Shown: positions 15,298 through 34,092 of the stretch, in pieces
Layout of the letters: every line of letters begins with the position of its first letter
How positions within the stretch are numbered: position 1 is the stretch's first letter
Notes under the pieces: generated by a model
What the model saw: only the letters and a program-made list of their open reading frames with translations
The model's database searches: none
What the model was told of the DNA's origin: nothing
Virus record (IMG/VR): IMGVR_UViG_3300023174_000414
Coordinates: 1 to 34,092 of that record
Source of the DNA: a virus
DNA: 34,092 nucleotides
Direction: 5' to 3' (one strand)
Position numbers and translations under genes: made by a program

Positions 15298-16776
15298 ATG
15301 GATATTTTAGACCCAGAAGGAATCAAGCTTAGAGGGTTTGATGATCCAATTTCACTTAGGCAATCGATACTAGATAAAGTGCTAGGTGCCTATTCCTCAA
15401 AATTTCCTGTAGAAAACGACAAAGTAAGAATAGAGGCCACTGACCTAAAATACGACTTCAAGAAACCGCCTTCATTATCTGACGAAAAAAAAGCACTCCT
15501 AACTGGAGGTAAAATGTCTGTTCCACTTACAGGAACAATAACATTGAAAGATAAAAATAGTGGTGAAGTACTGGATCAATTTAATGGCGTATTGAGCAGA
15601 GTACCCTGTATGACTCACAGAGGTACATTTATAAATAAAGGCAGCGAGTACAGCCTTGTTGCAGGGCAACAAAGATTAAAACCAGGTGTGTACGCCAGGA
15701 GAAAAGAAAACGGCGAGTTAGAGAGTCACGTAAACACAGTAGCGGGAACTGGTGCTGGCATGAGAATCTTCATGGAACCTGAGACAGGTATATACAGAGT
15801 TATGATAGGAAAAAGTAGAACTAAACTGTTTCCAGTATTGAAGGGTATGGGAGTTCAAGATGAAGAAATAATGAAGTATTGGGGACCTGAAATATTCGAC
15901 ATAAATAAAGGAGAGGATGACGATAAGTCGTTCGACAAATTCTATGAAAAACTTCTTGGTAGAAAAGCTAAAACAGATATAGATCAAAAAACAAAATCTA
16001 AGGATCTAAATCTTGAATTAAGCAAATCTCAGATAGATCCAGAAGTTATTGGAAGAACTCTTGGCATGGAAGGTAAAAATTTGTCTACGTCATTAATGCT
16101 TAGAGCTAGCCAAAAACTCCTCAACATTCAAAAAGGGCTTGAGCATGAAGATGATAGAGATAGTATGGCTAACAAAAATTTTGTTGGACCAGAGGATTTA
16201 TTTGAGGAGAGAGTATTAAAGGACTCAGGTAAGTTAATATCTAATCTATTGTATAAAGCTACTTACAATAGGCAATTGAAGGGAATAAAGCCTGGATACT
16301 TTACTCCACAATTAGATAGCCTAATTATCGGGAACAGCTTAAGTAACCACATAGCAGGAATCAATCCGCTTGAGATCTACGACTATCAAAAGAGAGTAGT
16401 CCAGACAGGCGAAGGAGCAATACAGTCTTCGGAAGCAATCCCAGCTTCTAGTCGTAATGTTTCTCCAAGTCAGGTAATGGTAATAGATCCAATTAGAAGC
16501 TCTGAATCCAAGAACATTGGCGTTGATCAAAGATTTTCATCGGTTGCAAAAAAGGGAGACGACGGAAATATTTACTTCCCAGTAAAAAATACCAAAACGG
16601 GTAAAAACGAATATATAAATGCAATCAAGATGAGTCAATCAATTGTTGGTTTCCCTATTGCACCAAAACTACAGTTCTCTCAACCGCCATTGCCAGTTGC
16701 CCCAGTTGCTGAAATCGCACCACAGCAACAAATTCAAGCTGAACCATCAGGCGCAACGCAGTACTTAAAGATATAA
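15298..16776 (+). CDS. Phage multisubunit RNA polymerase, beta N-terminal part
   Basis: 492 residues. It matches the first part of bacterial beta (RpoB). Residues 100-132 contain SRVPCMTHRGTFINKGSE then QQRLKPGVYARR, the counterpart of the bacterial motif around PLMTDRGTFIINGxE...RSPGVYF. Residues 389-417 (SPSQVMVIDPIRSSESKNIG then VDQRFSSVA) correspond to [20 protein letters not shown]. The chain ends shortly after, where the bacterial protein continues; the continuation is encoded 6 kb away at 22701. The classic rifampicin-contact stretch (HKRR...ALGPGG) appears replaced by YQKRVVQTGEGA. The bacterial beta N-half is longer, so insertions are trimmed. The last 40 residues are Pro/Ala/Gln-rich. 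Assignment is strong for beta; separation from beta-C is direct from the sequence. Confidence 0.93.
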   Translation: MDILDPEGIKLRGFDDPISLRQSILDKVLGAYSSKFPVENDKVRIEATDLKYDFKKPPSLSDEKKALLTGGKMSVPLTGTITLKDKNSGEVLDQFNGVLSRVPCMTHRGTFINKGSEYSLVAGQQRLKPGVYARRKENGELESHVNTVAGTGAGMRIFMEPETGIYRVMIGKSRTKLFPVLKGMGVQDEEIMKYWGPEIFDINKGEDDDKSFDKFYEKLLGRKAKTDIDQKTKSKDLNLELSKSQIDPEVIGRTLGMEGKNLSTSLMLRASQKLLNIQKGLEHEDDRDSMANKNFVGPEDLFEERVLKDSGKLISNLLYKATYNRQLKGIKPGYFTPQLDSLIIGNSLSNHIAGINPLEIYDYQKRVVQTGEGAIQSSEAIPASSRNVSPSQVMVIDPIRSSESKNIGVDQRFSSVAKKGDDGNIYFPVKNTKTGKNEYINAIKMSQSIVGFPIAPKLQFSQPPLPVAPVAEIAPQQQIQAEPSGATQYLKI

Positions 16777-16792
16777 TTAAGCCTTGCTTCAT

Positions 16793-17548
16793 TTACATGA
16801 TGCGACCCTTTTTTACATCTAAGCAGTGTTTTATTTTATCTTTGCTGATTATTTTATGTGCCGATTGACTTAATTTAAGTGCATCATCTAGGTTAGTATA
16901 TTGCATAAAACTATTTATTGGCGAAATTGGAGTACAGCTTATTAACTGTATTTTATTTTTTATACACAACTCATTAATATCTTTAAGCATTTCTAATTGA
17001 TAAGAGTAGAGCTCCCTATTGTATTTTCTTTGTTCTGTTGTCAATACTCTATCATCAAAGTAATCTTTTTCACCGCCAAGGTCACATCCAACAAAGTGAA
17101 TTTTTTTTGCACCCATTTTTATAATTAATTGGATACATATATATAGTGTGTTTTTTTGCCAAACAAACGGATGCTCATCAGTCAATGAAGTAAATATGTT
17201 GCTTCCAGGTTGCTCAGTAACAGAAGCAAAATAAACCTCCGGAAAATCTAATATAGATTTGCCATCAGCTTTCATTTTTTCAAACGACCCCCTAAATACC
17301 TTGGGAATAGGTTCGTATAAAATGTTTTTGTCGTAACAATCTATATCATCCATTCCCATCCATATATCTGGTTTCACTTTTGGATACGATGTATTGATTC
17401 CAAATATCTTTCTGCCGCTTCCCCTTATATCTTTGTTTACCTCGGCCAATGAAGGTCCTGTGCAAATTAAATAAGCATCCAGGTTTAATTCTTTTTTGAA
17501 CCATGAAGCTTTTACAAATTTTTCGCCAGAGTGATACCAGATAGACAT
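16793..17548 (-). CDS. MptE/DUF115-like glycosyltransferase-type protein
   Basis: 251 residues, the only convincing minus-strand gene. The N-terminal region has LICTGPSLAEVN, a Gly/Ser nucleotide-loop-like motif as in the 6-hydroxymethylpterin pyrophosphokinase MptE-like/DUF115 group, which also includes motility-associated and sialyltransferase-like enzymes. It continues with FGINTSYPKVKPDIWMGMDD. A second core motif is GAKKIHFVGCDLGG near residue 160. The rest is helical with an LISCTP strand. Expected chemistry is transfer to a sugar, lipid or pterin; substrate unknown. It ends 16 bases from the converging RNAP beta-N gene and starts 211 bases from the divergent gene at 17760. The reversed direction and self-contained unit suggest a moron-type acquisition, perhaps changing host surface glycans. 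Confidence 0.7.
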   Translation of the reverse strand: MSIWYHSGEKFVKASWFKKELNLDAYLICTGPSLAEVNKDIRGSGRKIFGINTSYPKVKPDIWMGMDDIDCYDKNILYEPIPKVFRGSFEKMKADGKSILDFPEVYFASVTEQPGSNIFTSLTDEHPFVWQKNTLYICIQLIIKMGAKKIHFVGCDLGGEKDYFDDRVLTTEQRKYNRELYSYQLEMLKDINELCIKNKIQLISCTPISPINSFMQYTNLDDALKLSQSAHKIISKDKIKHCLDVKKGRIM

Positions 17549-17759
17549 AGATAAGGTTTAATTACCGATACACCATAAATATTTTTAGCAATAACGCAAC
17601 TATAAAGCCATATATGTCTAAGGAGCCAGGGGGTACCTTATAATGACTCTTTTGAAGCCATAATATAATAGTAGGACGTCTGATACGAAGACTAAACAAG
17701 ACAAGTAAATCGCGTATACTATTTTTTAGTATACGCACAACAAATAGAAAGAAAATAAT
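17549..17759. promoter_or_regulatory. Divergent intergenic region with 10-bp hairpin
   Basis: This is the largest non-coding gap and the only divergent one, so promoters for both directions are expected here. TATAAT-like boxes occur near 17639-17644 and 17660-17666, but no convincing -35 partner is seen. AAGCCATA occurs twice about 50 bases apart. A perfect hairpin lies at 17712-17736: GCGTATACTA, TTTTT loop, TAGTATACGC. No T-tract follows it, so it is more likely an operator or leader structure than a terminator. Confidence 0.5.
17712..17736 (+). repeat. Perfect 10-bp inverted repeat with T5 loop
   Basis: Arms 17712-17721 and 17727-17736, loop 17722-17726. It ends 23 bases before the ATG at 17760. 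In form it is like the repeat at 7330-7355, though the sequence differs. Confidence 0.85.
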
Positions 17760-17978
17760 ATGTATATTGTGGATTCATTCACTGGCCCAAAGGCCAAAGA
17801 AGTTGCTATTGCTCCTCGTCCATTTGGGGCGGGGTTCCATAGTCAAGACGTAGAAAACATTCATTCTCTCCAAGTAATTGGAACATCAATGAATGATCAA
17901 GGTCCAGATTACTGCGATTTTGTTGCTAAAGACGATGAAGGCAATGTAATTGCAGTACAGAGAGTACAAGGATATTAA
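17760..17978 (+). CDS. Small uncharacterised protein
   Basis: 72 residues (MYIVDSFTGPKAKEVAIAP..., ending VIAVQRVQGY). It looks like a compact soluble beta-type protein. It is the first gene rightward of the divergent region and is followed at 1-base spacing by the gene at 17980. The GAAAG shortly before the ATG is a weak ribosome-binding site. No family is recognised. Confidence 0.5.
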   Translation: MYIVDSFTGPKAKEVAIAPRPFGAGFHSQDVENIHSLQVIGTSMNDQGPDYCDFVAKDDEGNVIAVQRVQGY

Positions 17979-17979
17979 T

Positions 17980-18369
17980 ATGTTTAAAATACAACATAAA
18001 CGAGATTATCCATGGGGGTGGTTCGATCTTCGGATTGTTCCACTCTACCTTACTCAAAAGGCAGCTGAGAGGGCAGTAAAACGCCTTAGCGCCCTTGGAC
18101 ATAATGTGAGGATTATAAAAATTGCAGCAGCACTATTAGTGTCATGTACTGCTGCAATAGCTAATGAGGCACCAATAATAATTCCTACATCACAACAATC
18201 TACCACCACTAAACTTGGAGGATTGTACACGACAACAACAAAAGATGGTCAGTGTTTTTATACTACTAGACTTGGGTCTGTACAAATTACACGAGACTCA
18301 CATGGCAACACATGGAGTACATCTCAATTAGGTAATGTTTACATTACTACACAACAACAAAAAAAATAA
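17980..18369 (+). CDS. Two-part protein: short N-terminal module plus apparent secreted repeat domain
   Basis: 129 residues from the ATG at 17980. Residues 1-42 (with PWGWFDLRIVPLYLTQKAAE) form a small basic module. Residues 43-61 (RIIKIAAALLVSCTAAIANE) look exactly like a signal peptide, yet lie inside the chain. An in-frame GTG at 18106 directly before them would give a normal 87-residue secreted protein with cleavage near AIA/NEA. The rest carries three imperfect units of the form T-x-LG-x-hydrophobic-Y-x-T (TKLGGLYTTTT, TRLGSVQITR, SQLGNVYITT), a pattern seen in small phage and bacterial proteins of unknown role. Either there are two nested products or the membrane helix anchors a fusion. 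Function unknown. Confidence 0.5.
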   Translation: MFKIQHKRDYPWGWFDLRIVPLYLTQKAAERAVKRLSALGHNVRIIKIAAALLVSCTAAIANEAPIIIPTSQQSTTTKLGGLYTTTTKDGQCFYTTRLGSVQITRDSHGNTWSTSQLGNVYITTQQQKK

Positions 18370-18376
18370 AAAACAA

Positions 18377-18559
18377 ATGAAACTTAAAAAAATTGAAATT
18401 AAATACATAGATAGAGTCACCAATGAAATTACTTACTGTGAAGTAATGGTAGAAGACAAAGGAGAAAATTTAAGCAATAATAAAACAAAAATTGAACAAT
18501 TCACAGAGAAAATTAGAAAACTCTGTAACTACCCAGAAACTAAAATAGTGTACGTTTGA
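18377..18559 (+). CDS. Small tandem paralogue A
   Basis: 60 residues from the ATG at 18377; the frame is open upstream to 18335 but overlaps the previous gene. It begins MKLKKIEIKYIDRVTNEITY and ends ETKIVYV. It is clearly homologous to the next gene: both start MKLKKIE[IV][KR]Y[IV]D, carry VEDxG in the middle and end K[IL]KIVYV or similar. The fold is probably a small beta/alpha unit. No function is recognised. Confidence 0.5.
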   Translation: MKLKKIEIKYIDRVTNEITYCEVMVEDKGENLSNNKTKIEQFTEKIRKLCNYPETKIVYV

Positions 18560-18561
18560 TA

Positions 18562-18741
18562 ATGAAACTTAAAAAAATTGAAGTCAGGTACGTTGACCCT
18601 AAAATCAACAAATACAAAAATTATTCAGTCGATATTTTTGTAGAAGACACTGGCAGCAAAATAACTAATGCCAGATTAGCCGCACACAAGTTCAGGGAAA
18701 AAGACCCTAAAAACAAACTAAAAATAGTATATGTTAAATGA
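18562..18741 (+). CDS. Small tandem paralogue B
   Basis: 59 residues from the ATG at 18562, 2 bases after its paralogue's stop. It starts MKLKKIEVRYVDPKINKYKN and ends KNKLKIVYVK; the shared MKLKKIE, VED and KIVYV motifs show a local duplication with later divergence. The stop overlaps the start of the next micro-gene (ATG at 18731). Function unknown. Confidence 0.5.
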   Translation: MKLKKIEVRYVDPKINKYKNYSVDIFVEDTGSKITNARLAAHKFREKDPKNKLKIVYVK

Positions 18742-18844
18742 AACAACAGTTAGAAGTGTAGGGTATTTTATAGAGTTTCTATTTAAAATGCTCCCTGCAA
18801 TGACGTTAATGTTTTTAGCATTAGCATTATACTGGAAAAAGTGA
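18731..18844 (+). CDS. Micro-protein with one transmembrane helix (37 residues)
   Basis: ATG at 18731 inside the end of the previous gene. The peptide MLNETTVRSVGYFIEFLF... has one hydrophobic helix (LPAMTLMFLALALYW) and a KK end. The overlap with both neighbours and the membrane character support expression; there is no other evidence. Confidence 0.35.
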   Translation: MLNETTVRSVGYFIEFLFKMLPAMTLMFLALALYWKK

Positions 18845-18933
18845 AAAACAAATTAATCAATTGGGGTCTATTTATTGTTGCGAGTGCAATGCTATTTATA
18901 CTGCGAACAAAAACAAAGAATGAAAAATACTGA
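18841..18933 (+). CDS. Micro-protein with one transmembrane helix (30 residues, GTG start)
   Basis: GTGA overlap with the previous stop. The peptide starts (M)KNKLINWGLFIVASAMLF and ends in a basic tail (LRTKTKNEKY). A single hydrophobic helix follows a basic N-terminus. The stop overlaps the next gene's ATG at 18920. Too short for family recognition. Confidence 0.35.
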   Translation: MKNKLINWGLFIVASAMLFILRTKTKNEKY

Positions 18934-19216
18934 AAACACAGACATTGATGAGCTATTCACCATGATGTTGAGAGACGTTGAAAGCAATAAAGACTATGAT
19001 AGAGCCGAGCAGATAGAAGGATGCTTGGAGCTATTCATGCAAGAGAATAATCTTGCAGGAGCCCTTGTAGAAAAGGCTATATTCTTATACTTGAAACTCA
19101 CTCTTGATAAAGAATTGGTGCAAAAAGAAGTGGTCCGCAAGGACCACTTTTTTTTATCTACTGGACATTTTTGCTGTAGTAGTTATATACCTAGTGAGTA
19201 TGAAAACAACAACTAA
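18920..19216 (+). CDS. Small helical protein with an intrinsic terminator in its 3' end
   Basis: 98 residues from the ATG at 18920; the frame is open further up to a TTG at 18875. The first 70 residues look like a helical bundle (DIDELFTMMLRDVESNKDYD, EQIEGCLELFMQENNLAGAL). The last 28 residues (from EVVRKDHFFLST) are encoded by and beyond a perfect terminator hairpin, so this tail may not belong to the ancestral protein. No family is recognised. Confidence 0.5.
   Translation: MKNTENTDIDELFTMMLRDVESNKDYDRAEQIEGCLELFMQENNLAGALVEKAIFLYLKLTLDKELVQKEVVRKDHFFLSTGHFCCSSYIPSEYENNN
19128..19155 (+). terminator. Intrinsic terminator inside a reading frame
   Basis: AAGTGGTCC (19128-19136), GCAA tetraloop, GGACCACTT (19141-19149), then T's to 19155. 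The 9-bp stem with a GNRA-type loop is strong. It lies about 60 bases before the stop of the gene it overlaps. Confidence 0.85.
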
Positions 19217-19280
19217 ACAATTCATAGCAATAGCTATTTTTGCTGCTTGTTCTATTGCATATTATTATTTTTTGTTTTAA
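19200..19280 (+). CDS. Micro-protein with one transmembrane helix (26 residues)
   Basis: ATG at 19200 overlapping the end of the previous frame. The peptide starts MKTTTKQFIAIAIFAACSIA and continues with an aromatic end (YYYFLF). It has a basic N-terminus and one helix, and could also be a relic signal peptide. It lies after the terminator at 19128-19155. Expression is uncertain. Confidence 0.3.
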   Translation: MKTTTKQFIAIAIFAACSIAYYYFLF

Positions 19281-19300
19281 GTACACAACACAATATATTT

Positions 19301-19879
19301 ATGAACGGACTTGACACAACAATAGAAAACGTATTTACAGTAGATGAAATGGAGGATGTAATAAGCTCCTATAAAAATAAAATTAAGCCAACTGTTATAT
19401 TTGGTAGTGGTAAAACACAATTACTTCATGTAGATAAAAAAATAAGAGACGCACTAGGTTATTTTATTAGAGACTCTAATCCAGTGGTTGATAGATTCAA
19501 ACAACTTACTTCAGCAATAACGGGTTTACCAATCAAGCATCAGGAAAGCCCCAATTTTGTAAAATACAAAAAAGGCGGATTCTATAAACCTCATTTTGAC
19601 GGATTTAATGATTCTGAATCTGGGCAGAAAAGCATTAAAGAATCCGGACAAAGAATGTTTAGTTCTATACTATATTTGAATGACGACTTTGACGGAGGGG
19701 AAACAGTTTTTCCCAAAATAGACAAAATAATTAAACCAAGTCCAGGTAAAGTACACATATGGAGAAATGCATTTGAGGACCTAAAACTAGACCAAAAATC
19801 TCTTCATGCTGGCAATCCAGTAGAGTCTGGAGTTAAGTATGTAATTGTAATATGGGTAAGGTCAAATATTATTGCTTAG
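19301..19879 (+). CDS. 2-oxoglutarate/Fe(II) oxygenase, prolyl 4-hydroxylase type
   Basis: 192 residues from the ATG at 19301; the upstream part of the frame from 19247 overlaps the micro-gene and is hydrophobic, not part of the fold. The iron site is complete: H98-x-D100 in KPHFDGF and distal H169 in SLHAGNPVESGVKYV, with K179 placed ten residues later for the 2-oxoglutarate carboxylate. ILYLNDDFDGGETVFP is the strand pair typical of P4H-alpha domains. The enzyme would hydroxylate a peptidyl proline or similar side chain; the target is unknown. Such genes are known from marine and cyanobacterial phages. The lack of a signal peptide implies action in the cytoplasm, perhaps on virion or host proteins. 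Confidence 0.88.
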   Translation: MNGLDTTIENVFTVDEMEDVISSYKNKIKPTVIFGSGKTQLLHVDKKIRDALGYFIRDSNPVVDRFKQLTSAITGLPIKHQESPNFVKYKKGGFYKPHFDGFNDSESGQKSIKESGQRMFSSILYLNDDFDGGETVFPKIDKIIKPSPGKVHIWRNAFEDLKLDQKSLHAGNPVESGVKYVIVIWVRSNIIA

Positions 19880-19900
19880 TTAAATTACAGCGTATATAAT
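19872..19900 (+). promoter_or_regulatory. Putative sigma70-like promoter
   Basis: TTGCTT (19872-19877), 17 bases, perfect TATAAT (19895-19900); expected start near 19907 with the ATG at 19912. The -35 box overlaps the end of the oxygenase gene. Confidence 0.35.
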
Positions 19901-19911
19901 TTAAAAATAAT

Positions 19912-20433
19912 ATGAGCAAGTATCTATCTATATACACAAGTGAATTACAAAAAACAGCTGGGTTAGAAAAAATTCTTGCTCCAATGGCTAAAGGCCTTTT
20001 TACAAAAGGCATAAGTAGTTTATCAAATTTAGCAAAACCGGCCCTTGCAACTGCAGCTAAAGTGGAAGCGCCTGCGGCTTCAGCAGCAGTTGGAAAATCA
20101 ATAGGTGCAGTAGCTCAAAATTTAGAGCCCGTTGCAGCAAAGGCTACTTCATTTTTACCTAATGCAACTCAACAAATTGCGGGTGCAACAAATTTAGCAG
20201 CTTCACCAGTAGTTTCGAGTGCTGGAGCCAGAGCTACTTCATTTTTACCTAAATTACCACAGGGATCAACTTTGCTAAATGATCTTCACATGGCTAAAGT
20301 GGATACAAGACAAGCCATTAATTTAGCCAGGCAAAGAGGAACGCCAATGGCAAAACAAAACGTAAAAGATACGTTTAGCAACTATAGAGATTTAATGGGG
20401 CGGATGTCTCAATATCGTACTCCAGGAATTTAA
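19912..20433 (+). CDS. Ala-rich virion-like protein with paired SFLP motifs
   Basis: 173 residues, rich in Ala, Ser, Thr and Pro. It begins MSKYLSIYTSELQKTAGLEK, then has a weakly hydrophobic stretch (LAPMAKGLFTKGISSLSNLA). Two near-identical segments 30 residues apart read KATSFLP (F81) and RATSFLP (F111). The C-terminal 45 residues are basic and helical (RQAINLARQRGTPMAKQNVK). The SFLP motif recurs four times, in SFLP or NFLP form, in the next gene's product, linking the two proteins. It may be an internal or scaffold protein cut or docked at these sites; unproven. No family is recognised. Confidence 0.55.
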   Translation: MSKYLSIYTSELQKTAGLEKILAPMAKGLFTKGISSLSNLAKPALATAAKVEAPAASAAVGKSIGAVAQNLEPVAAKATSFLPNATQQIAGATNLAASPVVSSAGARATSFLPKLPQGSTLLNDLHMAKVDTRQAINLARQRGTPMAKQNVKDTFSNYRDLMGRMSQYRTPGI

Positions 20434-20450
20434 TTTTTTGTTTACACAAA

Positions 20451-21674
20451 ATGAATTCATTCCTTCCTTCTTCATCATTTTACAAGGAGGCAAGTGAGCA
20501 AGCAGATTTAAATTTTTTACCAGATTACTCTCCTGAGCAACTTTCAGAAATGGGAGTTTATGAAGAGGTATATGATAGAACAAAGCCTAGACTTGCTAGT
20601 CTGAATAGTTGGCCCGAGCACTGGTTTCACCCAGAAGATAAAATGGGATGGCTTGAGTGGTATAAAAAATACAACTCAGGTAGAAGAATGGAAGATGACA
20701 AAAGGCAAATTAAAAGATGGATTGCTTTCAAAGCTAGACATGGAGGAAAAGCCTTCCAAGAAAATCCAACTCCAAGGAGAGCTTATGCATTAAGAAACTG
20801 GGCTATTGATCCAGCTAAATTAGTAAAAGATCCAGAAGCATTAAAAGTTGTTATGGACGAATATAAGGAAAAACAATATAGTAAGAGTATGGATAAATCG
20901 TCTAATTTAAACTGGTACGGAGCTGAAACCAGTAATTATTCTGACTCTGGAAAGCCAGGAGTATATCATGGAATACCAATAAGAGAGTCAGACGAAGTTG
21001 GCTGGTTTCAAAACCCCCAAAAATCGGTGCCTCGCAGCAAAATTAAAAAAATTATAGAAGAATTATCTAAGCTTAAGGGTGTTGACACAAAGTTTTATCC
21101 GCCAGCAGAGTATGAAAAAGATGGATTAGGTTTTGGGTGGACAGTAGACGAAAACAGGGGGTATGCCGATAAAAATATGGCGCAAAAAATTGATGAAATT
21201 TTATATGGCAAAAATATGAATAAAGTTAGCTTTCTACCCAAGGTGGCAAAAGATGAAAAACCTGGTCTTTGGGCAAACATCAGGGCAAAAAAGCGCAGAG
21301 GGGAAAAACCAGCTAAACCTGGTGACAAAGATTTTCCAGATAAGGAACAGTGGAATAAGTTGACAAAGAAATCGTCTGAAGTATCATTCTTGCCTAAGTT
21401 AGCAAAATCACCAGCTTGGCAAAGATCTGAGGGGAAAAACTCAGAGGGTGGGTTAAATGCTAAAGGTAGATCTAGTTACAATAAAGAAACAGGAGGCAAT
21501 CTAAAAGCTCCAGTTACTGAAAAAAATCCAAGCGGAAAAAGAGAGACAAGACAAAACAGTTTTTGTTCTAGAATGTGTGGAATGAAAAGCAAACTAACTG
21601 GATCTAAAACTAAAAACGATCCAGACAGCAGAATAAACAAAGCTCTTAGAAAATGGAGATGTCGTTGTGGATAA
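20451..21674 (+). CDS. Modular protein: basic helical domain, GLWANI module and Cys-containing C-terminal module, punctuated by FLP motifs
   Basis: 407 residues. Module 1 (about 35-150) has WLEWYKKYNSGRRMEDDKRQ then IKRWIAFKARHGG, a basic helical domain I recall from other environmental phages. Module 2 (about 268-300) has KPGLWANIRAKKRRGEKPAK. Module 3 (about 318-407) has GGLNAKGRSSYNKETGGNLK, PVTEKNPSGKRE, FCSRMCGMKSKL and INKALRKWRCRCG, matching a conserved phage protein I remember as DUF6321. SFLP-type motifs sit at F4, F22, F261 and F313, before each module; two read SFLPK[VL]AK. This resembles a polyprotein of basic modules, perhaps DNA-binding and packaged. The 3' end overlaps the metallopeptidase gene. 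Domain names are from memory; catalytic function is not evident. Confidence 0.65.
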   Translation: MNSFLPSSSFYKEASEQADLNFLPDYSPEQLSEMGVYEEVYDRTKPRLASLNSWPEHWFHPEDKMGWLEWYKKYNSGRRMEDDKRQIKRWIAFKARHGGKAFQENPTPRRAYALRNWAIDPAKLVKDPEALKVVMDEYKEKQYSKSMDKSSNLNWYGAETSNYSDSGKPGVYHGIPIRESDEVGWFQNPQKSVPRSKIKKIIEELSKLKGVDTKFYPPAEYEKDGLGFGWTVDENRGYADKNMAQKIDEILYGKNMNKVSFLPKVAKDEKPGLWANIRAKKRRGEKPAKPGDKDFPDKEQWNKLTKKSSEVSFLPKLAKSPAWQRSEGKNSEGGLNAKGRSSYNKETGGNLKAPVTEKNPSGKRETRQNSFCSRMCGMKSKLTGSKTKNDPDSRINKALRKWRCRCG

Positions 21675-22674
21675 TAAAACTTCACCAAAATTCAATAAAA
21701 AAATAGCCACAACTATTGGGGCAACAAAAGCTTTAATAAAATTACTGAGAAGTAACGGAATTTCATTATTTCGTCCCAGGAATATTGAAAAACTTGAACA
21801 ACTATTATCATCTAAAGCCCCTGGTTTTATTAAATCTCAGGGTACTGGATTGCAGTACATGAAGGATAAACTAAAGCAAACTATTGCTGGTTTCTATCCT
21901 TCGCAAAAAGCTATTTTTATAAATAATATGTCAGCTGCACCACTTAGCGTAAAAGAGTACCTTAAGCCCAGTCCTAGGAACATTTTTTTTCACGAAGCCG
22001 GACATGCACTTCACGCTATTGACGATCCAGTTCAACAATCATTACTCAATATAAGAAAATTAAATTTATTGATGCCCGAGGATATAGCTTTAGAAAGAAT
22101 TGCAAACAACAATGCAATTAATTTTATGCGTGAAAATAAAGTTCCGCAAATAAATATAAGTAACTATATAAAAAACGTAAAACCAGCATATGCAACATAT
22201 TTAAATAATTTTAAGGACAATCAAAACTTGGTCAAAAAAGTTTTTCCGGAGATGGCAGATGAATTTAAGAAAAGAAGCCTAAGGGGGGAGACAACACAGT
22301 TTTCTCCTGTACCCCGAAAACATTTTTCAGTGCCTACAGGTAAAGTGCCTCCTGCTTACAATAAGAAAGCAGTAGAGCTTTCTACCAGTGTACCAAATGA
22401 AACTCCTGACGATTTATACAAAAGAATCATCTCAAAAAAAATAAATATTGATCAATTTTTTAATAATGCTACAAAGCACAATTGGGATATTCCAGGAATA
22501 CCTGGGTTCTTAGCTAGAACAGTTGCTAGAAAAGCAGAAAAGGATCCAGATCCATATTTAAACTCTCTTATAAATAAAGTACCTAAAAATACAGTAATAG
22601 ACGCTATAAAAAGAAATCCTGATGCATTCAAAAACGTTTCTAATAAAATAACTGGTGCCAATAACGTAGCGTAA
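21667..22674 (+). CDS. HEAGH zinc metallopeptidase-like protein
   Basis: 335 residues from a GTG at 21667 that overlaps the previous stop by 8 bases; the first in-frame ATG is too far in (21859). H109-E-A-G-H113 in IFFHEAGHALHAIDD is a classical HExxH zinc site, and a downstream Glu in LERIANNNAINFM about 30 residues later is placed as the third ligand of a gluzincin-like site. Residues 75-95 (AGFYPSQKAIFINN) form the edge strand before the helix. The last 150 residues are Lys/Pro-rich and likely a separate, partly disordered domain. It lies between the FLP-motif proteins and the RNAP middle subunit. A virion-maturation or host-directed protease is plausible; the substrate is unknown. Confidence 0.75.
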   Translation: MDNKTSPKFNKKIATTIGATKALIKLLRSNGISLFRPRNIEKLEQLLSSKAPGFIKSQGTGLQYMKDKLKQTIAGFYPSQKAIFINNMSAAPLSVKEYLKPSPRNIFFHEAGHALHAIDDPVQQSLLNIRKLNLLMPEDIALERIANNNAINFMRENKVPQINISNYIKNVKPAYATYLNNFKDNQNLVKKVFPEMADEFKKRSLRGETTQFSPVPRKHFSVPTGKVPPAYNKKAVELSTSVPNETPDDLYKRIISKKINIDQFFNNATKHNWDIPGIPGFLARTVARKAEKDPDPYLNSLINKVPKNTVIDAIKRNPDAFKNVSNKITGANNVA

Positions 22675-22700
22675 ATACAAGAAGATGTATTAAAGTTATC

Positions 22701-25700
22701 ATGAAAAAAGATATTTTCTCAGAAATGTTTCCTGGATTAGTTAAGCAAGCATACACTGGAGCACCGCAAAACAACGCAATCCCAGCAATGAGAAAAGGGA
22801 AGCTGACGTATGCAGACCCTAGTGAAATAGATTACGAGATTATTTCCCCTTCACATCTATATACCGAATCTACAAATCTTGCACCAATGATGAGTACAAT
22901 GAAGGGGGCAAGAGCATTCATGGCTGGAAAGTACTTTACTCAAGCTTTGCCAATGGCTGAGCCAGAGTCCCCCTTAGTTAAATCAATTGACCCAGACTCA
23001 AATGATTCAATCGAATCTACTGTTGGTAAAAAAATAGGAATGAACTTTTCCCCCGTTGATGGAGTAGTAAAGAAAGTAGAAAAAGATAAAATTACTTTAT
23101 CCGATAGCAGTAATAACAATTTTGAAGTTGAGCTTAGGAATTATTATCCACACAATAGAAAAACTTTTACAACAGATACTCCGATTGTTGCCGTTGGACA
23201 GCAAATCAAGAAGAATGATCCAATATCTCATTCCAACTATGTAACGAAAGACGGAGATCTTGCTATTGGCAAAAACCTAAGAGTTGCCTTTATGCCAGGT
23301 AAACAGGGCGGAACATTCGAAGATTCCATTACCATTAGCGAAGGAGCCGCCAAGAAGTTGACCTCATCTCATCTATATGGATTTGATGTGGAAAACAAAC
23401 TTGGAACAACTTCCGGTAAAACAAAATTTATTCAATTGTTCCCTAACAAATACACTAAGGAGCAATTAGATAAAATAGACGAAAATGGCATGGTAAAACC
23501 TGGAGCAAATTTAAGTACAGGTGATCCAGTGTTTTTATCTATTGCTCCTAGAACTCTAAGAGCCGAAGACAGGGCTAAAGGCAATTTACACAAAATACTT
23601 AAAAAATCTTTTATAGATAAAAGTCAAACATGGGAAAAAAGTTCGCCTGGCCAAGTGGTAGACTCCATAGAAACTAGAAGTGGACTGTCTGTTAACGTAG
23701 CCGCAAATTTCTCAGCTAAACCAGGAGATAAAATTTCATCGAGATTTGCTGCAAAAGGAGTTATTGGAAGAATTGTTCCAGACGACCAAATGTTTAAAGA
23801 CAAAGATGGTAATGTAGTTGATGTTTTAATTAACCCAGCGGCAATGATAGGAAGAGTTAACCCAGGCATGGTATATGAATCCTTGTTAGGTAAGATAGCT
23901 ACAAAAACTGGAAAAAAATATACACTCCCACATTTCTCTGAAGACTCATTTCACGAGTACGTAAAAAACGAGCTAAACGTTAATCAAGTTAGCGACACAG
24001 AAGATTTGTTTGATCCAGTTACTGAAAGAGTTGTTCCAAAAGTTTTAACTGGTGTTCAAAATTTTTTAAAACTAGAACATACAGCTGATGCAAAACTAAG
24101 TGCAATAGATGAGGGTGCATCAGATCAAAATGAGCAGCCAAGTAGACCAGGTGGATCTGATAGCGCAAAGAGAATCGGAAACCTAGACATCATGGCTCTA
24201 TTATCTCACGGTGCCGTAAAAAACCTTTCAGATATACAAAACTACAGAACGGGGTCCAATCCAGATATGTGGAGATCAATAAGACTTGGGGCATCGCTAC
24301 CAGCTCCAAAGATTCCGTTTATTTACGAAAAATTTAAAAATACATTGATAGCTGCTGGAATTAACCCAGACAAAACTGGATCAAAGATTACTATAAAAGC
24401 TCTTAAGGGAGTAGATGTAGACTCTCTTGTTGGCAATAGAGAGGTTAAAAATTCATCAACGATTGACCCCAAGACAGGTGAGCCAATCGCTGGAGGCTTA
24501 ATGGATCACGCTATTCATGGAATAAGTGGAAAAGATTGGAGCTATATAAAACTTAATGAGCCGACTCCTAATCCAATATTGGAAGAACCACTAAGGAAGA
24601 TATTAGACTTAACTGAGCCTCAAATGAGGAAGGTATTATCTGGTGAAGAATCCATCGATGGCAGATATGGCTCAGATGCTTTAATCAAAAAATTTGAGTC
24701 CATAAATTTGGATAAGATGGAAGAAGATCTAAGGTCGAAAATTAGGAATGGGGCAAAAACAACAAGGAACGATGCAATTAAGAAGTTAAACATCCTATCT
24801 GGCATTAAAAAACAAGGTCTTGATAAGAACGATTTTTTCATGACCAAAGTTCCTGTTCTTCCTCCGAGTTTCCGTCCAGTAACTATTGCAGGTAAAATGA
24901 TGTTAAGTGCTGACTCAAACTATCTGTACAAAGATTTAATGACTGCAAGAGATTTACACAGCCAAATTAAAAATGAGTTAGGGGATCGTTCAGCTGGTGA
25001 AGAAAATCTTGCTGTATATGATTCGCTCGCTGCGGTAGTTGGATTAGGCGACCCACTTCACCCTAAGTTACAGCAAAAAGGTGTTAAAGGTTTTATAAAA
25101 CATCTATCTGGATCAGGTGGTCCCAAGACTGGAATGTTTCTCTCTAAGGTTGTTGGACATACTGTAAATACAGTTGGACGAGGTGTAACTATACCTAGCG
25201 ATGAGCTAGATATGGATAGCATAGGGTTGCCTGTTAAAATGGCTTGGAAACTTTATTCACCATTCGTTATGAGAAGGATGGTAAAAAATGGAATGAGCGC
25301 ACAACAAGCTGCTTTGAATATTGAGCGAAAGACTGATTACGCAAAAAATTTCCTAGTAAAGGAACTTGAAGATAGGCCAGTCATGTACAATCGTGCTCCT
25401 GCTTTGCATAGATTTAATATTATGTCCGCTAACCCCAGGCTTGTGTCCGGAGACTCTATTCAAGTTAGCCCTCTTATTGTCAAAGGATTCAATTTAGACT
25501 TTGACGGTGATCAAATGAATGTACATGTTCCCGTGTCAGACGAAGCAGTAACAGAAGCAAAAGAAAAACTCTTGCCATCTAAAAATTTGTTATCTATAAA
25601 AGACAACAAGATATTTTATGCACCATCACAAGAATTTATACTTGGGTTATATAACACAACAGGAAAAGGAAATGGGAAGGAAACAGTAAAATTTAATAGC

Positions 25701-25772
25701 GCATCAGACGTTATAGCTTCCTATAGGCGCGGAGAAATATCAATGGACACACCAGTAAGTATTGGTGCATAA
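22701..25772 (+). CDS. RNA polymerase fusion: beta C-terminal part joined to beta' N-terminal part
   Basis: 1023 residues containing the end of one subunit and the start of the other. Beta part: DYEIISPSHLYTESTNLAPM (from about 44), GDLAIGKNLRVAFMP with F206-E-D-S, and KPGDKISSRFAAKG (K344 and K352, counterparts of E. coli K1065/K1073). NPAAMIGRVNPGMVYESLLG and IGNLDIMALLSHGA (about 492-505) end beta. Beta' part: GGLMDHAIHGISGKDW (from 598), VPVLPPSFRPV (717-727), VGRGVTIPSDELDMDSIGLP, YNRAPALHRFNIM, and catalytic NLDFDGDQM at 931-939 holding the three Mg-binding Asp. There is no Cys in the chain, so the beta' N-terminal zinc domain is absent. The flap is shortened. It is a single open frame without a break, so the fusion is genuine. 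Confidence 0.95.
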   Translation: MKKDIFSEMFPGLVKQAYTGAPQNNAIPAMRKGKLTYADPSEIDYEIISPSHLYTESTNLAPMMSTMKGARAFMAGKYFTQALPMAEPESPLVKSIDPDSNDSIESTVGKKIGMNFSPVDGVVKKVEKDKITLSDSSNNNFEVELRNYYPHNRKTFTTDTPIVAVGQQIKKNDPISHSNYVTKDGDLAIGKNLRVAFMPGKQGGTFEDSITISEGAAKKLTSSHLYGFDVENKLGTTSGKTKFIQLFPNKYTKEQLDKIDENGMVKPGANLSTGDPVFLSIAPRTLRAEDRAKGNLHKILKKSFIDKSQTWEKSSPGQVVDSIETRSGLSVNVAANFSAKPGDKISSRFAAKGVIGRIVPDDQMFKDKDGNVVDVLINPAAMIGRVNPGMVYESLLGKIATKTGKKYTLPHFSEDSFHEYVKNELNVNQVSDTEDLFDPVTERVVPKVLTGVQNFLKLEHTADAKLSAIDEGASDQNEQPSRPGGSDSAKRIGNLDIMALLSHGAVKNLSDIQNYRTGSNPDMWRSIRLGASLPAPKIPFIYEKFKNTLIAAGINPDKTGSKITIKALKGVDVDSLVGNREVKNSSTIDPKTGEPIAGGLMDHAIHGISGKDWSYIKLNEPTPNPILEEPLRKILDLTEPQMRKVLSGEESIDGRYGSDALIKKFESINLDKMEEDLRSKIRNGAKTTRNDAIKKLNILSGIKKQGLDKNDFFMTKVPVLPPSFRPVTIAGKMMLSADSNYLYKDLMTARDLHSQIKNELGDRSAGEENLAVYDSLAAVVGLGDPLHPKLQQKGVKGFIKHLSGSGGPKTGMFLSKVVGHTVNTVGRGVTIPSDELDMDSIGLPVKMAWKLYSPFVMRRMVKNGMSAQQAALNIERKTDYAKNFLVKELEDRPVMYNRAPALHRFNIMSANPRLVSGDSIQVSPLIVKGFNLDFDGDQMNVHVPVSDEAVTEAKEKLLPSKNLLSIKDNKIFYAPSQEFILGLYNTTGKGNGKETVKFNSASDVIASYRRGEISMDTPVSIGA

Positions 25773-29419: not shown

Positions 29420-31276
29420 ATGACCACAACTGTTGCGAGGCTAATATTTAATTCTATAGTTCCAGATAAGTTTAGGAGCGACATTCCAGATGATCAACCA
29501 ATTGGTTCCCAGGAATTAAAAAACGTCTTGCAAAGAGTTGCGGAAGAAGAACCAGAGCAATACAAAGATATATCATTCAAGTTAATGAGGTTGGGGTCTA
29601 AGGGTGCTGTAGAAACCGGAAGCTCTTTTTCTATGGAAGATCTAGAGTCTCCAATAGATAAAAAAAAGTTATTAGAGGAAGTATCGCAAAGAGAAAATGA
29701 AATCTTTTCAGATAAAACATTAACGCAGGAGAAAAAAGAAGACCTCTTAGTTAAGATGTATGATAAGTATTCTTCTAAGATGCCTAACCTTATATTTGAT
29801 GCTTCAATCAAGAAGGGGTCAAATCTTGCCAAGATGGTTGCATCAGGAGCCAGAGGAAATAAAAGTCAATTAAACAGCAATATAGGAGCTGACTTTCTAG
29901 TAACCGATCAATTCAATAGACCAGTTCCAATCGGCATAAAAAGTTCGTACACTGAAGGAATGTCCCCAGCTGAATATTTTGCCGCAAGCTATGGAACTAG
30001 GGCTGGATTGATTGCAACAAAATTCTCTACGCAAAACTCGGGATTCTTGGCTAAGCAAATCAATGCTTCAGCTATGGACCTCTTAGTAACTGAAGACGAT
30101 TGCGAAACTAAATCTGGCATCCCTGTAGATACATTAGATAAAGAAAATATTGGATCTGTTTTAGCCAAGGGGGTCAATGGATATGGTGCTGGTACTATTA
30201 TAACAAATAAAGTTTTGCAGGATTTACAAAAAACTGGCAAACCACAAATATCCGTAAGGTCTGCAATTACGTGTAATGCAAGTAACGGCATTTGCTCCAG
30301 GTGCGCTGGAGTCAGGGAGAGGGGCAAACTTCCTTCATTATCTGATGCGATAGGCCTGGCAGCAGCTAGTGCGTTAACAGAGCCGTTGAGTCAGTCTTTG
30401 CTTTCAACCAAGCACTCAGCTGGCGTAGCTAATGCATCAAAAGTTACAGGATTCAAGGCAATCAATTCATTGTTTCAAGTACCAGACACTTTTCCAGACA
30501 AAGCCTCATTATCTGAATCAGATGGAACGGTAGACAAGATAGAAGAGTTGCCGCAGGGGGGATTCAATATTGCGGTTGGACAAAAAAATCACTTCATTTC
30601 CCCAGAACATGAAATACTAGTAAAACGAGGAGATAAAATTGAGGCTGGAGATAGGTTATCTAGTGGAATGCTGAACCCCTCAGACATAGTTAGATTAAAG
30701 GGCATTGGAGCAGGAAGACTTAGCCTATTAAAACAAATACAAGATACATTTAAAGAGAATGGAATAAATGTATCAAGAAAGAATGCTGAAGTAGTAACCA
30801 GAGCTGTAGTTGATCACGTAAAGATTGTAGACGGAGACGAGACAGATGGATATCTACCTGATGATACAGTTGAATATAGTTCTTTTAGCAAAACATATAA
30901 ACCTCGTGAAAACTCAATTTACCGGAATCCATCAAATTCAATTGGTAAATATTTAGAGGCACCAGCGTTGCACTACACTATAGGAACTAGAATTACTCCA
31001 AGCGTTGCAAAACAACTAAATGACTTAGACGAAAAAGAAGTATTAGTTTCAGACCAGCAACCATCATTTAGTCCAGTAATGGTTAGATTAATGGAGAATC
31101 CATCATATGACAAGGATTGGATGTCGCAACTTGGAACTTCATACGTTCAAAAGAATTTAAAGAAAAACGTAATAAGTGGAGATGTAAGTACAGACATACA
31201 TGGTACAAACCCGCTTCCAGGGTTAGCTTACGGGAAAGAATTTGGAAAGCCACCAAAAGGGGTTATTGGGTACTAG
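29420..31276 (+). CDS. Phage RNA polymerase, beta' C-terminal part
   Basis: 618 residues. ARLIFNSIVPDKFR opens it, like the segment after the active site in bacterial beta'. VASGARGNKSQLNSNIG (from 140) is followed by the bridge-helix region SPAEYFAASYGTRAGLIATK (182-) and FSTQNSGFLAKQI. A zinc site is kept: C228 (EDDCET), C285, C292, C295 (ITCNASNGICSRC), with the last three spaced as in E. coli C888/C895/C898. The trigger-loop part is LSDAIGLAAASALTEPLSQS then LLSTKHSAGVA; the catalytic His is H332, but the position of E. coli R933 seems to be Ser (S329). The C-terminus is KPPKGVIGY. The bacterial beta' C-terminal half is much longer, so insertions are absent. It is clearly the partner of the fusion at 22701. 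Confidence 0.94.
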   Translation: MTTTVARLIFNSIVPDKFRSDIPDDQPIGSQELKNVLQRVAEEEPEQYKDISFKLMRLGSKGAVETGSSFSMEDLESPIDKKKLLEEVSQRENEIFSDKTLTQEKKEDLLVKMYDKYSSKMPNLIFDASIKKGSNLAKMVASGARGNKSQLNSNIGADFLVTDQFNRPVPIGIKSSYTEGMSPAEYFAASYGTRAGLIATKFSTQNSGFLAKQINASAMDLLVTEDDCETKSGIPVDTLDKENIGSVLAKGVNGYGAGTIITNKVLQDLQKTGKPQISVRSAITCNASNGICSRCAGVRERGKLPSLSDAIGLAAASALTEPLSQSLLSTKHSAGVANASKVTGFKAINSLFQVPDTFPDKASLSESDGTVDKIEELPQGGFNIAVGQKNHFISPEHEILVKRGDKIEAGDRLSSGMLNPSDIVRLKGIGAGRLSLLKQIQDTFKENGINVSRKNAEVVTRAVVDHVKIVDGDETDGYLPDDTVEYSSFSKTYKPRENSIYRNPSNSIGKYLEAPALHYTIGTRITPSVAKQLNDLDEKEVLVSDQQPSFSPVMVRLMENPSYDKDWMSQLGTSYVQKNLKKNVISGDVSTDIHGTNPLPGLAYGKEFGKPPKGVIGY

Positions 31277-31798: not shown

Positions 31799-31894
31799 AT
31801 ATAAAATGTACTAGCTTTTTTTTACATACTGAGTATTATAAAAATAAATTCTTTCATTTAATGGAATTTTAGTCCAAAATAATTGTCTAAAAAT
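31799..31894 (+). other. Intergenic gap before the large partial gene
   Basis: A 96-base AT-rich stretch between terminator and ATG. TTTACA near 31821-31826 and A/T-rich boxes after it might be a promoter, but spacing is poor. No ORF, hairpin or ribosome-binding site stands out. Confidence 0.3.
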
Positions 31895-34092
31895 ATGCCA
31901 AATCAATTGCAACAAATAGAGCAAAATTTATCAGAGATTGCTGTATCTTTAATTTCAGAAAAAAACCCAAACTTAATGGAGTATTATCTAGGATTCGATA
32001 TAATAGATAAGAACGAAGATGGCACAAGAGCTGCAGGTATAATGGGTTTTAAAATAGGTGGACAACTGGTTTACATACCAGTGTTTTTCTTGAACGGCAA
32101 AGTCAAGGGTACTGAAGTAATGTACTTAAAGAACTCAGATACATTTGTTGCAAACAACGAAAATTGGGTTAACTACATTGCAAACCAGAACCCACAAGAC
32201 ATAGGGCAAGAATCAAAAGAAGTTCCTCTTCCCGACACAGAAGGGAACAATTCTTTGAGAATATTTACAAGACCACCAGCTAGCGCAAATAGTAAAGCTG
32301 CTTCAGCTGAGATTTATGAACTATCCGTAGACGATTTTATAAATCCAGAAATAGCACTAGCAGAGCCAGAAAAAGATTTAATAACTTTATTAAAACAAGG
32401 TGGATATGAGATGTATAAACATTTCATAAAAGTTGCTACTGACAACCCAGAGATCTTAAAAGCTGTTTCTAATATATACTCATTAGATGAAATAAAGATT
32501 GATTTTGAAGATAACAAAGTTGCATCACAAGAAACAGAAAATATCTATAAAAATATAGATACTAATCGGGCTATTAGATTAATTAAATCCGCTGAATTGA
32601 TGAATCTCAAAATGGAGATGTCAACGGAAGAAAAAACAAAAACAATAAAAAATGGCTACGTTATAAAAGACGAAAGATCCGAAGACCAAAAAAGCGATTT
32701 ATATCTTGGAGACTTCAGAGAAGAATTCAATCAAGTAACTGAGACAGGCTACTATGAAATACTGAACTATAGCGGTGATATAGTTAAAGCAATTGTTCTT
32801 GTTGCCCCCAGGTCTATTACCGAGGGCACTAGTACTTTAGACAATAGCGGAACAGGATATGCAACTCAGGTAGTCATTGATCCAGATAATGGATCAGTAG
32901 AGTGGGCACATAATCCAGTTTATTATAAGTCTGGTGCAAGCATAGTGGAGAAATTAGATGAAGACGGCAAAGCTGAATTAATTGAAAAAACAGGCACAGA
33001 CCCTAAGTCTGCAGAAGTACGCAAAAAGTATTTCATGCTTGATAAGAATTTCACAGCCTATGGCCCATTTTCCGTTTCAAATAAAATAAAAGAAAGCGGT
33101 AAGGTCACTCTTGAAGTGGAACAAGATCACATTCCACAGTACAATAGTTTATTATTGTCTAGTTCCAGTTCTGAAAAATTAAATAGAAATTATGGATTTT
33201 GTGGACACTGGGGACAAAAGGCTTTTATCCGAGTTATAGACAAAGAGGACGGCTTACCTCAGTTTACGAAAGGTAACGTAGTATTTATCCCTAAAAACTG
33301 TAAGTTAATAGAAATAAAAGATAAGTACAGCGCATTACAAGAGAAGTCTAATATAGATAAAATCAAACCAGGAGACGATAAAACATTGAACTCTCTTCTG
33401 TCCTCAAGAAGAGGAGAAATCGTTGCAGTAGATAAAACAGCCAAATTCGACGTAACTGTTTTATTTGGTAATCAGTCATTGTCATTCAGAGATAGGTCTG
33501 AAGTTGTTTTTGATTTGATGAGCAGAGCTGGATTGCGAGAGCAAGACGCAGAAAAAATAGCTTCTGAAATATTCGAAAACAAGAGTCGAAAAATATCTGG
33601 GTGGGCCTTACCAAAATCAGATAAATTAGCTTATCCATCTTTTATTACTCCTAGCGGAAATGGTGGAGTTGCTAGAGATGGTACACCTATCTCAAATCAA
33701 GACTCGACAAGACAAGAAATGATTAGTGCAGGTGCTGGCCCAGCTAGTGCAACCGAATTAGATAGTGGACAGTGGAATCAAATAACAAAAGAAGATATAG
33801 ATTTCTTACAAAGAGCCAGCGATAGTAATTCTAGGCAAGTATTTGATCCAGGAATGATTGGAGTACTGACAAGAACTTCAAGGTCTCAGTCTATCGTACA
33901 GGAATACATCCCTGAATTAGTTGATAACTTAGATAGAATGTCTAGATTGTTGCTCATGTTCTATTGGCACAATGCTGATTTTGCTGAACAATATGGCATA
34001 GATGAAATGGCTGATTTCGAAGACTTACTTCTTTCAACAATAAAATCAACAGCAAAAATTGTTTTATTCTTGAAACAAAGATCAGTAGAGAA
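31895..34092 (+). CDS. Large uncharacterised structural-type protein (3' end outside window)
   Basis: The frame is open from the ATG at 31895 to the window edge (732 codons), so the gene is partial. It begins MPNQLQQIEQNLSEIAVSLI. The first 110 residues are a compact domain (AAGIMGFKIGGQLVYIPVFF, FLNGKVKGTEVMYLKNSDTF). Later regions alternate soluble helical and beta-rich segments (SGDIVKAIVLVAPRSITEG, VTLEVEQDHIPQYNSLLLSS). A Gly/Ala/Ser-rich linker carries DKLAYPSFITP (K577-Y580), like other K-x-A motifs here. The last stretch is helical (RMSRLLLMFYWHNADFAEQY). Size and downstream position after the RNAP operon fit a large head, inner-virion or tail protein. No family is recognised. Confidence 0.65.
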   Translation, partial: MPNQLQQIEQNLSEIAVSLISEKNPNLMEYYLGFDIIDKNEDGTRAAGIMGFKIGGQLVYIPVFFLNGKVKGTEVMYLKNSDTFVANNENWVNYIANQNPQDIGQESKEVPLPDTEGNNSLRIFTRPPASANSKAASAEIYELSVDDFINPEIALAEPEKDLITLLKQGGYEMYKHFIKVATDNPEILKAVSNIYSLDEIKIDFEDNKVASQETENIYKNIDTNRAIRLIKSAELMNLKMEMSTEEKTKTIKNGYVIKDERSEDQKSDLYLGDFREEFNQVTETGYYEILNYSGDIVKAIVLVAPRSITEGTSTLDNSGTGYATQVVIDPDNGSVEWAHNPVYYKSGASIVEKLDEDGKAELIEKTGTDPKSAEVRKKYFMLDKNFTAYGPFSVSNKIKESGKVTLEVEQDHIPQYNSLLLSSSSSEKLNRNYGFCGHWGQKAFIRVIDKEDGLPQFTKGNVVFIPKNCKLIEIKDKYSALQEKSNIDKIKPGDDKTLNSLLSSRRGEIVAVDKTAKFDVTVLFGNQSLSFRDRSEVVFDLMSRAGLREQDAEKIASEIFENKSRKISGWALPKSDKLAYPSFITPSGNGGVARDGTPISNQDSTRQEMISAGAGPASATELDSGQWNQITKEDIDFLQRASDSNSRQVFDPGMIGVLTRTSRSQSIVQEYIPELVDNLDRMSRLLLMFYWHNADFAEQYGIDEMADFEDLLLSTIKSTAKIVLFLKQRSVE

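What the first reader, a model, noticed from the sequence alone, without database searches (positions are those of the whole stretch)
22701..25772. RNA polymerase chain that fuses the end of beta to the start of beta'
One unbroken 1023-residue frame carries beta C-terminal motifs (FED at 206-208, K344/K352, IGNLDIMALLSHGA) and then beta' N-terminal motifs, ending soon after the catalytic NLDFDGDQM. Beta N and beta' C are in two other genes, so the enzyme is a three-piece split with a cross-subunit fusion. Known jumbo-phage polymerases (phiKZ, AR9 type) split beta and beta' into separate halves; beta-beta' fusions of complete subunits are known in Helicobacter and Wolbachia. I know of no described phage with this exact arrangement.
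Basis: partly seen in the sequence, partly recalled or inferred. Interest (0 to 1): 0.85.

Follow-up and report, generated by a model that had tools for sequence, protein, structure and literature searches.

The report
Phage RNA polymerase with moved subunit boundaries
A phage carries its own cell-type RNA polymerase cut at unusual places: one protein holds the end of one large subunit joined to the start of the other, with both halves of the active site, while two separate genes hold the rest; the same join runs through a large family of phages, including isolates such as Salmonella phage Arash, where it had not been noticed.

Summary
The 1023-aa frame at 22701-25772 is one intact, strongly conserved gene (dN/dS 0.03 against its nearest relative). 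It joins the C-terminal half of RNAP beta to the N-terminal half of beta' with almost no linker and carries both catalytic barrels. BetaN is at 15298-16776 and beta'C at 29420-31276. It is not an assembly error: at least five other IMG/VR contigs have the same chain.

The fusion is not unique to this phage. In all 96 distinct relatives examined, betaC and beta'N share one chain. The usual layout is two genes, [beta-beta'N] + [beta'C], including the isolates Salmonella phage Arash and Vibrio phage D69. Five relatives have one beta-beta' chain of 2032-2527 aa. A tree rooted on bacteria supports stepwise change: full fusion, then one cut in beta', then one cut in beta (the window's clade). The beta' zinc ribbon and recognisable alpha genes are missing.

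In Arash the fused chain is reported as the most detected virion protein, so an injected virion RNAP is likely, though inferred here. The lineage probably overlaps the published "mReC" phages (unconfirmed). The papers I could search do not describe this layout.

Verdict: real; new variant of a known kind.

The parts
15298..16776 (+). betaN: N-terminal part of RNAP beta as its own gene (492 aa); ends in the loop equivalent to RpoB about 620-628, plus a 39-aa unrelated tail
   Evidence: Rpb2_2 4.1e-5; PDB beta 1.4e-15; Arash gp206 residues 12-468; alignment to Salmonella RpoB
22701..25772 (+). betaC-beta'N fusion chain (1023 aa) carrying both catalytic double-psi barrels
   Evidence: AF2 pLDDT 85.5, pTM 0.74; residues 8-565 align to plastid/cyanobacterial beta at Z 33-39
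23319..23324 (+). beta E207-D208 (E813/D814-type motif, FED)
   Evidence: D208 invariant in 40 homologues
23730..23756 (+). beta catalytic lysines K344 and K352
   Evidence: invariant in 40 homologues
24354..24401 (+). beta/beta' junction (residues about 552-567): the end of beta runs straight into the start of beta', with a strand-turn-strand in the model
   Evidence: alignment to Salmonella RpoB C-terminus and RpoC N-terminus; model strands 554-559 and 562-567
25491..25517 (+). beta' catalytic motif NLDFDGDQM
   Evidence: D933, D935, G936, D937 invariant in 40 homologues
29420..31276 (+). beta'C: C-terminal part of beta' as its own gene (618 aa), starting at the TTVGR strand (RpoC about 567)
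   Evidence: Rpb1_5 8.5e-26; PDB beta' 1.4e-51; alignment
9280..11010 (+). homologue of Arash gp204, annotated as portal protein, upstream of the RNAP genes
   Evidence: profile match 6.8e-258 to L016 8597-10336
14220..15275 (+). gene that lies directly before beta in two-gene relatives too; shows that betaN keeps the ancestral place
   Evidence: L007 7871-8569, L064 7566-8654, L078 7751-8608, each directly before the beta gene
16777..22700 (.). block of cargo genes between betaN and betaC, largely different in each three-piece relative; occupies the place of the beta cut
31883..34090 (+). homologue of Arash gp218, a virion protein by mass spectrometry; runs off the window end
   Evidence: profile match 6e-94; virion proteome in PMC10585845

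Best explanation
The window encodes a cell-type multisubunit RNA polymerase made of three chains: betaN, betaC-beta'N and beta'C. Shown: the middle chain joins the complete end of beta to the start of beta' and holds both active-site barrels; the beta' zinc ribbon is absent; no recognisable alpha gene is found in related records. Supported by the tree: the ancestor was a single beta-beta' chain; beta' was cut once after its catalytic barrel, before the TTVGR strand; later, in the window's clade, beta was cut once in the loop before its catalytic half, and cargo genes now occupy that gap. Inferred: the three chains reassemble by themselves into a crab-claw enzyme, with the covalent beta-beta' join doing part of the holding job that alpha does in cells. 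Inferred from the relative Arash and from the gene's place among virion genes: the enzyme is packaged in the virion and injected to start phage transcription.
For: Both halves in one open frame with strong matches, under purifying selection across the junction, with a confident one-chain model. Census: betaC-beta'N on one chain in 96 of 96 distinct loci. Tree: one-gene forms outside, two+three-gene forms one clade (SH-aLRT 99), three-gene forms one clade (100). Cut positions against RpoB/RpoC; zinc-ribbon pattern found in 0 of 144 chains but in the Salmonella control. No alpha in 16 records, 13 of them over 95 kb. Synteny shows betaN in the ancestral beta position. Arash gp206 (beta-beta'N) has the most spectra of any virion protein (3516; 128 peptides, 100% coverage), gp216 (beta'C) 1210 and sigma gp10 467 (PMC10585845). 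Precedent for phage genes split by homing endonucleases whose pieces reassemble: nrdA of Aeh1 and gene 43 of phage 25 (PMC2988022).
Against: No experiment on this phage; packaging is known only for Arash, which is about 31% identical and two-gene, and its authors note that abundant infection proteins could be carried over. Sigma factors were found only in Arash and D69, so promoter recognition in the window's phage is unknown. The root rests on three bacterial outgroups, and the one-gene group is held together at only 76-93%. No complex of the three chains was predicted. The beta' half was not itself covered by the structural alignment rows.
Confidence: 0.82

Rival explanations
1. The layout is already covered by the published mReC lineage (Weinheimer & Aylward 2020); nothing is new except the annotation.
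For: mReC contigs came partly from IMG/VR, were required to hit both COG0085 and COG0086 at >=800 aa with NADxDGD, and form one clade; one fused gene could satisfy both searches. Two of their three named contigs come from metagenome 3300017989, next in number to the samples of L031, L049, L064, L067 and L070.
Against: The paper's main text uses 'fused' and 'fusion' only for crAssphage. The window's NLDFDGD fails their NADxDGD filter. mReC capsids hit PF07068, which finds nothing in 16 records here, although the control found it nowhere either. No contig of 3300017989 turned up.
Confidence: 0.3
2. The evolutionary order is different: the split two-gene form is ancestral and the one-gene fusions are later re-fusions.
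For: Unrooted, the one-gene group is simply one side of a branch, so the order depends on the root.
Against: In bacteria beta' is continuous at this place, and the one-gene forms keep it in line; re-fusion would have to restore that. The bacterial root falls at the one-gene end.
Confidence: 0.15
3. The cuts are inherited from a phiKZ-like or cyanobacterial enzyme rather than arising inside this lineage.
For: phiKZ nvRNAP gp71 seems to begin close to the window's beta cut, extrapolated from a 60-residue anchor; cyanobacteria and phiKZ also cut beta' after the barrel (PMC7598289).
Against: phiKZ gp55 ends about 85 positions upstream of the window's beta' cut, and cyanobacterial gamma continues about 70 residues past the point where the window chain's match ends. 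The window's beta cut is nested among relatives that lack it.
Confidence: 0.06
4. The enzyme is a decaying, inactive relic.
For: Unusual fragmentation; NLDFDGD instead of NADFDGD.
Against: dN/dS of 0.03 in betaC-beta'N and betaN; catalytic residues invariant; NLD variants also occur in other family members.
Confidence: 0.03
5. The join is an assembly or frameshift artefact.
For: None found.
Against: The same join in at least five other contigs of the clade and in 96 distinct loci, including complete isolate genomes.
Confidence: 0.01

Closest known systems
Salmonella phage Arash gp206/gp216 and Vibrio phage D69 homologues (deposited isolates)
   Same: betaC joined to beta'N on one chain; separate beta'C gene; next to portal and structural genes; same family by sequence (31% over 97% of the chain)
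   Different: betaN still attached (two genes, not three); sigma factors detected; annotated only as 'beta' or hypothetical, so the fusion went unremarked
phiKZ/AR9-type (Chimalliviridae and relatives) multisubunit RNAPs
   Same: Split beta and beta', alpha-less, virion association of one enzyme; beta cut apparently near that of phiKZ nvRNAP
   Different: There beta and beta' parts never share a chain; 4-5 core chains; beta' cut at a different position
mReC phages (Weinheimer & Aylward 2020)
   Same: Cell-like RNAP in uncultured tailed phages from metagenomes and IMG/VR, up to >200 kb
   Different: Described as encoding beta and beta' subunits; no fusion or split described in the main text; identity with this family not settled
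Bacterial rpoB-rpoC fusions (Helicobacter, Wolbachia; from general knowledge)
   Same: Direct join of the beta C-terminus to the beta' N-terminus
   Different: Complete subunits fused, not cut again inside each subunit; they keep alpha
crAss-like and P23-45 single-chain two-barrel RNAPs
   Same: Both barrels on one chain; virion RNAP known
   Different: So diverged that cellular profiles do not match; separate clade of two-barrel enzymes (PMC7481178, PMC10770324)

Membership tests
Cell-type (bacterial-like) multisubunit RNAP catalytic core | Both barrels with the beta lysines and beta' DxDxD | tested here: met
Cell-type (bacterial-like) multisubunit RNAP catalytic core | Beta' N-terminal zinc ribbon, as in bacterial beta' | tested here: not met
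   Pattern found in 0 of 144 chains; Salmonella control has it. What is claimed is homology of the catalytic core, not the full cellular subunit set
Cell-type (bacterial-like) multisubunit RNAP catalytic core | Alpha subunit encoded with it | tested here: not met
   PF01000 absent in 16 records of the family, several incomplete; use of host alpha cannot be excluded
phiKZ/AR9-type split RNAP | Beta and beta' portions on separate chains throughout | tested here: not met
phiKZ/AR9-type split RNAP | Two RNAPs (virion and non-virion) per genome | tested here: inconclusive
   One RNAP locus matching P0001 per record (two rows in one record are pieces of one locus); a very diverged second enzyme could be missed
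Arash-type phage RNAP family (this family) | BetaC-beta'N on one chain, zinc ribbon missing, family-level sequence match | tested here: met
Arash-type phage RNAP family (this family) | RNAP chains in the virion | not testable with these tools
   Known only for Arash (PMC10585845)
mReC RNAP | NADxDGD motif in beta' | tested here: not met
   Window has NLDFDGD; many relatives have NADFDGD
mReC RNAP | Falls in the mReC clade of the published tree | not tested

The most novel reading that the evidence does not exclude
A large lineage of tailed phages passed its cell-derived RNA polymerase through a single-chain beta-beta' stage and then re-cut it inside each subunit, so that subunit boundaries moved from between beta and beta' to within them; the re-cut, alpha-less enzyme is packaged and injected, and the beta lobe serves as an insertion platform for other enzymes (pyrophosphatase, 2H phosphoesterase, SET).
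Probability: 0.5. Interest if true: 0.75.

Novelty: new variant of a known kind. Interest (0 to 1): 0.62.

Why it matters
It suggests by natural experiment that the beta/beta' boundary is not essential: the same enzyme occurs as one, two and three chains within one phage family, with the cuts placed elsewhere. That makes open questions testable: how an alpha-less RNAP assembles, whether fusion replaces alpha, and how split phage RNAPs arise (fusion first, then cutting). Isolated members exist (Arash on a Salmonella Typhimurium laboratory strain; Vibrio phage D69). It also corrects annotation, since the Arash chain called 'beta' also carries the catalytic half of beta'.

Tried and rejected
Split-intein trans-splicing to rejoin betaN and betaC: the tails (39 and 26 aa) carry no intein signal and Pfam finds none in either window protein. 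Direct test of identity with mReC by fetching contigs of metagenome 3300017989: none returned by two scans. PF07068 capsid test: uninformative, since the control also failed. Nucleotide match of the window to deposited phages: none. Scan of bacterial and archaeal genomes gave one one-gene relative in a MAG (L104) and one ordinary bacterial rpoBC (L105). phrog_2297 'DNA endonuclease' label on 19247-19879 rejected: Pfam says 2OG-Fe(II) oxygenase. The structure search rows shown covered only the beta half; the beta' half rests on sequence.

Full report
Observation. The frame at 22701-25772 is one 1023-residue gene. Its first ~560 residues are the C-terminal half of RNAP beta and the rest is the N-terminal half of beta': Pfam Rpb2_6 at 119-474 (2.8e-40) and Rpb1_2 at 884-955 (6.6e-25), with PDB matches to beta (26-417, 1.7e-46) and beta' (627-1021, 2.6e-52). 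BetaN is the separate gene 15298-16776 and beta'C the separate gene 29420-31276. An AlphaFold2 model built on 40 relatives has mean pLDDT 85.5 and pTM 0.74; residues 8-565 align with plastid and cyanobacterial beta at Z 33-39. The beta' half rests on sequence similarity and local model confidence.

Not an artefact. The same chain occurs in L002 (93% identity), L003 (76%), L098 (75%), L006 (47%) and, with an intein, L097. Against L002 dN/dS is 0.03 overall and 0.05 across the junction. The catalytic residues are invariant in 40 homologues.

Anatomy. Aligned with Salmonella RpoB/RpoC and family members, the beta cut falls in a loop equivalent to about RpoB 620-628. The beta C-terminus runs into the beta' N-terminus (about residues 15-25) with almost no linker. 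The beta' zinc-ribbon pattern was found in none of 144 family chains (near-duplicates included), but in the Salmonella control. The beta' cut falls at about RpoC 545-567, so beta'C begins with the TTVGR strand. No alpha gene (PF01000) was found in 16 records of the family; sigma factors were recognised only in Arash and D69.

Family. Over all distinct loci examined, betaC and beta'N share a chain in 96 of 96. This is the best-matching part of the family; lower-ranked relatives were not classified. 67 loci show [betaN-betaC-beta'N] + [beta'C]; 16 more show the first chain with beta'C not found in the stretch held; five carry one chain with all four parts; two have beta cut at another place (L089, L155). 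The three-piece form is seen in the window and in L002, L003, L006, L097/L101 and L098 (betaN lies off the contig end in L003 and L098), and as stand-alone betaN genes in L100 and L102. The deposited isolates Salmonella phage Arash (gp206, 1525 aa; gp216, 606 aa) and Vibrio phage D69 have the two-gene form; D148 and D181 match over a single long piece.

Order of events. In trees rooted on three bacteria the one-gene forms lie outside, the two- and three-gene forms make one clade (SH-aLRT 99), and the three-gene forms one clade nested in it (100). The simplest reading is fusion first, then one cut in beta', then one cut in beta. Bacterial beta' is continuous at the beta' cut, which favours this order over re-fusion. 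The root rests on few outgroups.

How the beta cut arose. In two-gene relatives the gene equivalent to 14220-15275 lies directly before beta; in the window it lies directly before betaN. BetaN therefore kept the ancestral place, and the block 16777-22700 now separates it from betaC. The genes in this gap differ between relatives (2OG oxygenase, capsule-type synthesis, a weak HNH match). Free-standing homing endonucleases are known to split phage genes whose pieces still reassemble (nrdA of Aeh1; PMC2988022). This is an analogy, not shown here.

Function. In Arash, gp206 has the most spectra of all virion proteins (3516; 128 peptides; 100% coverage), with gp216 and sigma gp10 also present (PMC10585845). 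The window's genes lie between homologues of the Arash portal protein and of virion protein gp218. I infer a packaged, injected RNAP. Carry-over of an abundant infection protein is the alternative named by the Arash authors.

Known systems. phiKZ/AR9 enzymes split beta and beta' but do not mix them on a chain (PMC7598289, PMC7824862). By profile alignment phiKZ gp55 ends about 85 positions before the window's beta' cut, vRNAP gp178 spans the window's beta cut, and nvRNAP gp71 seems to start near it, from a short anchor. The mReC phages (PMC7481178) probably overlap this family, because one fused gene could satisfy both of their profile searches, but the main text mentions fusion only for crAssphage, and I could not retrieve their contigs. 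Searches of the open-access literature found no description of the fusion-plus-splits layout; most subscription papers are not in that library.

Verdict. Observation confirmed; interpretation partly supported. The arrangement is a new variant of phage multisubunit RNAP, shared by a large lineage rather than unique to this phage.

Noticed in passing
L006 4152-6521 (betaN gene): An inorganic pyrophosphatase domain (PF18823, 2.6e-49, residues 300-430) is inserted inside betaN of a three-piece relative; pyrophosphate is the by-product of transcription.
   Followed up: partly
L067 7127-14203, also L031, L051: At about the same place in the beta lobe other relatives carry inserts; in L067 they weakly match 2H phosphoesterase, SET and HAD-like domains.
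   Followed up: partly
L008, L010, L034, L067, L009; L097 9998-15010: Intein-like inserts sit at many separate RNAP sites; in L097 one sits right at the catalytic NLDFDGD/QM motif.
   Followed up: partly
L089 8390-11989 and 12033-14021; L155: Beta is cut at an intein site used in relatives, with a weak LAGLIDADG match left in the first ORF of L089: possibly a second, independent gene break via an intein.
   Followed up: no
L016 21738-23156 (Arash gp217): A SNF2/ResIII-type helicase lies next to beta'C in Arash, as reported near beta'C genes of phiKZ-like phages; it is absent between beta'C and the gp218 homologue in the window.
   Followed up: partly
window 20451-21674: DUF6321 domain (2.2e-21) at the C-terminus of a 407-aa protein upstream of betaC, shared by several phage families of unknown function.
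   Followed up: no
window 1543-2298: Papain-like cysteine peptidase (phrog_16701, 3.4e-48), function in the phage unknown.
   Followed up: no
window 16793-17548 (minus strand): Sialyltransferase/MptE-like gene on the minus strand among plus-strand genes, lying in the cargo gap right after betaN.
   Followed up: no
phages collection, AFYI01000006 and OR844998 records: Some records filed as phages hold bacterial rpoB-rpoC loci and look like host sequence.
   Followed up: partly
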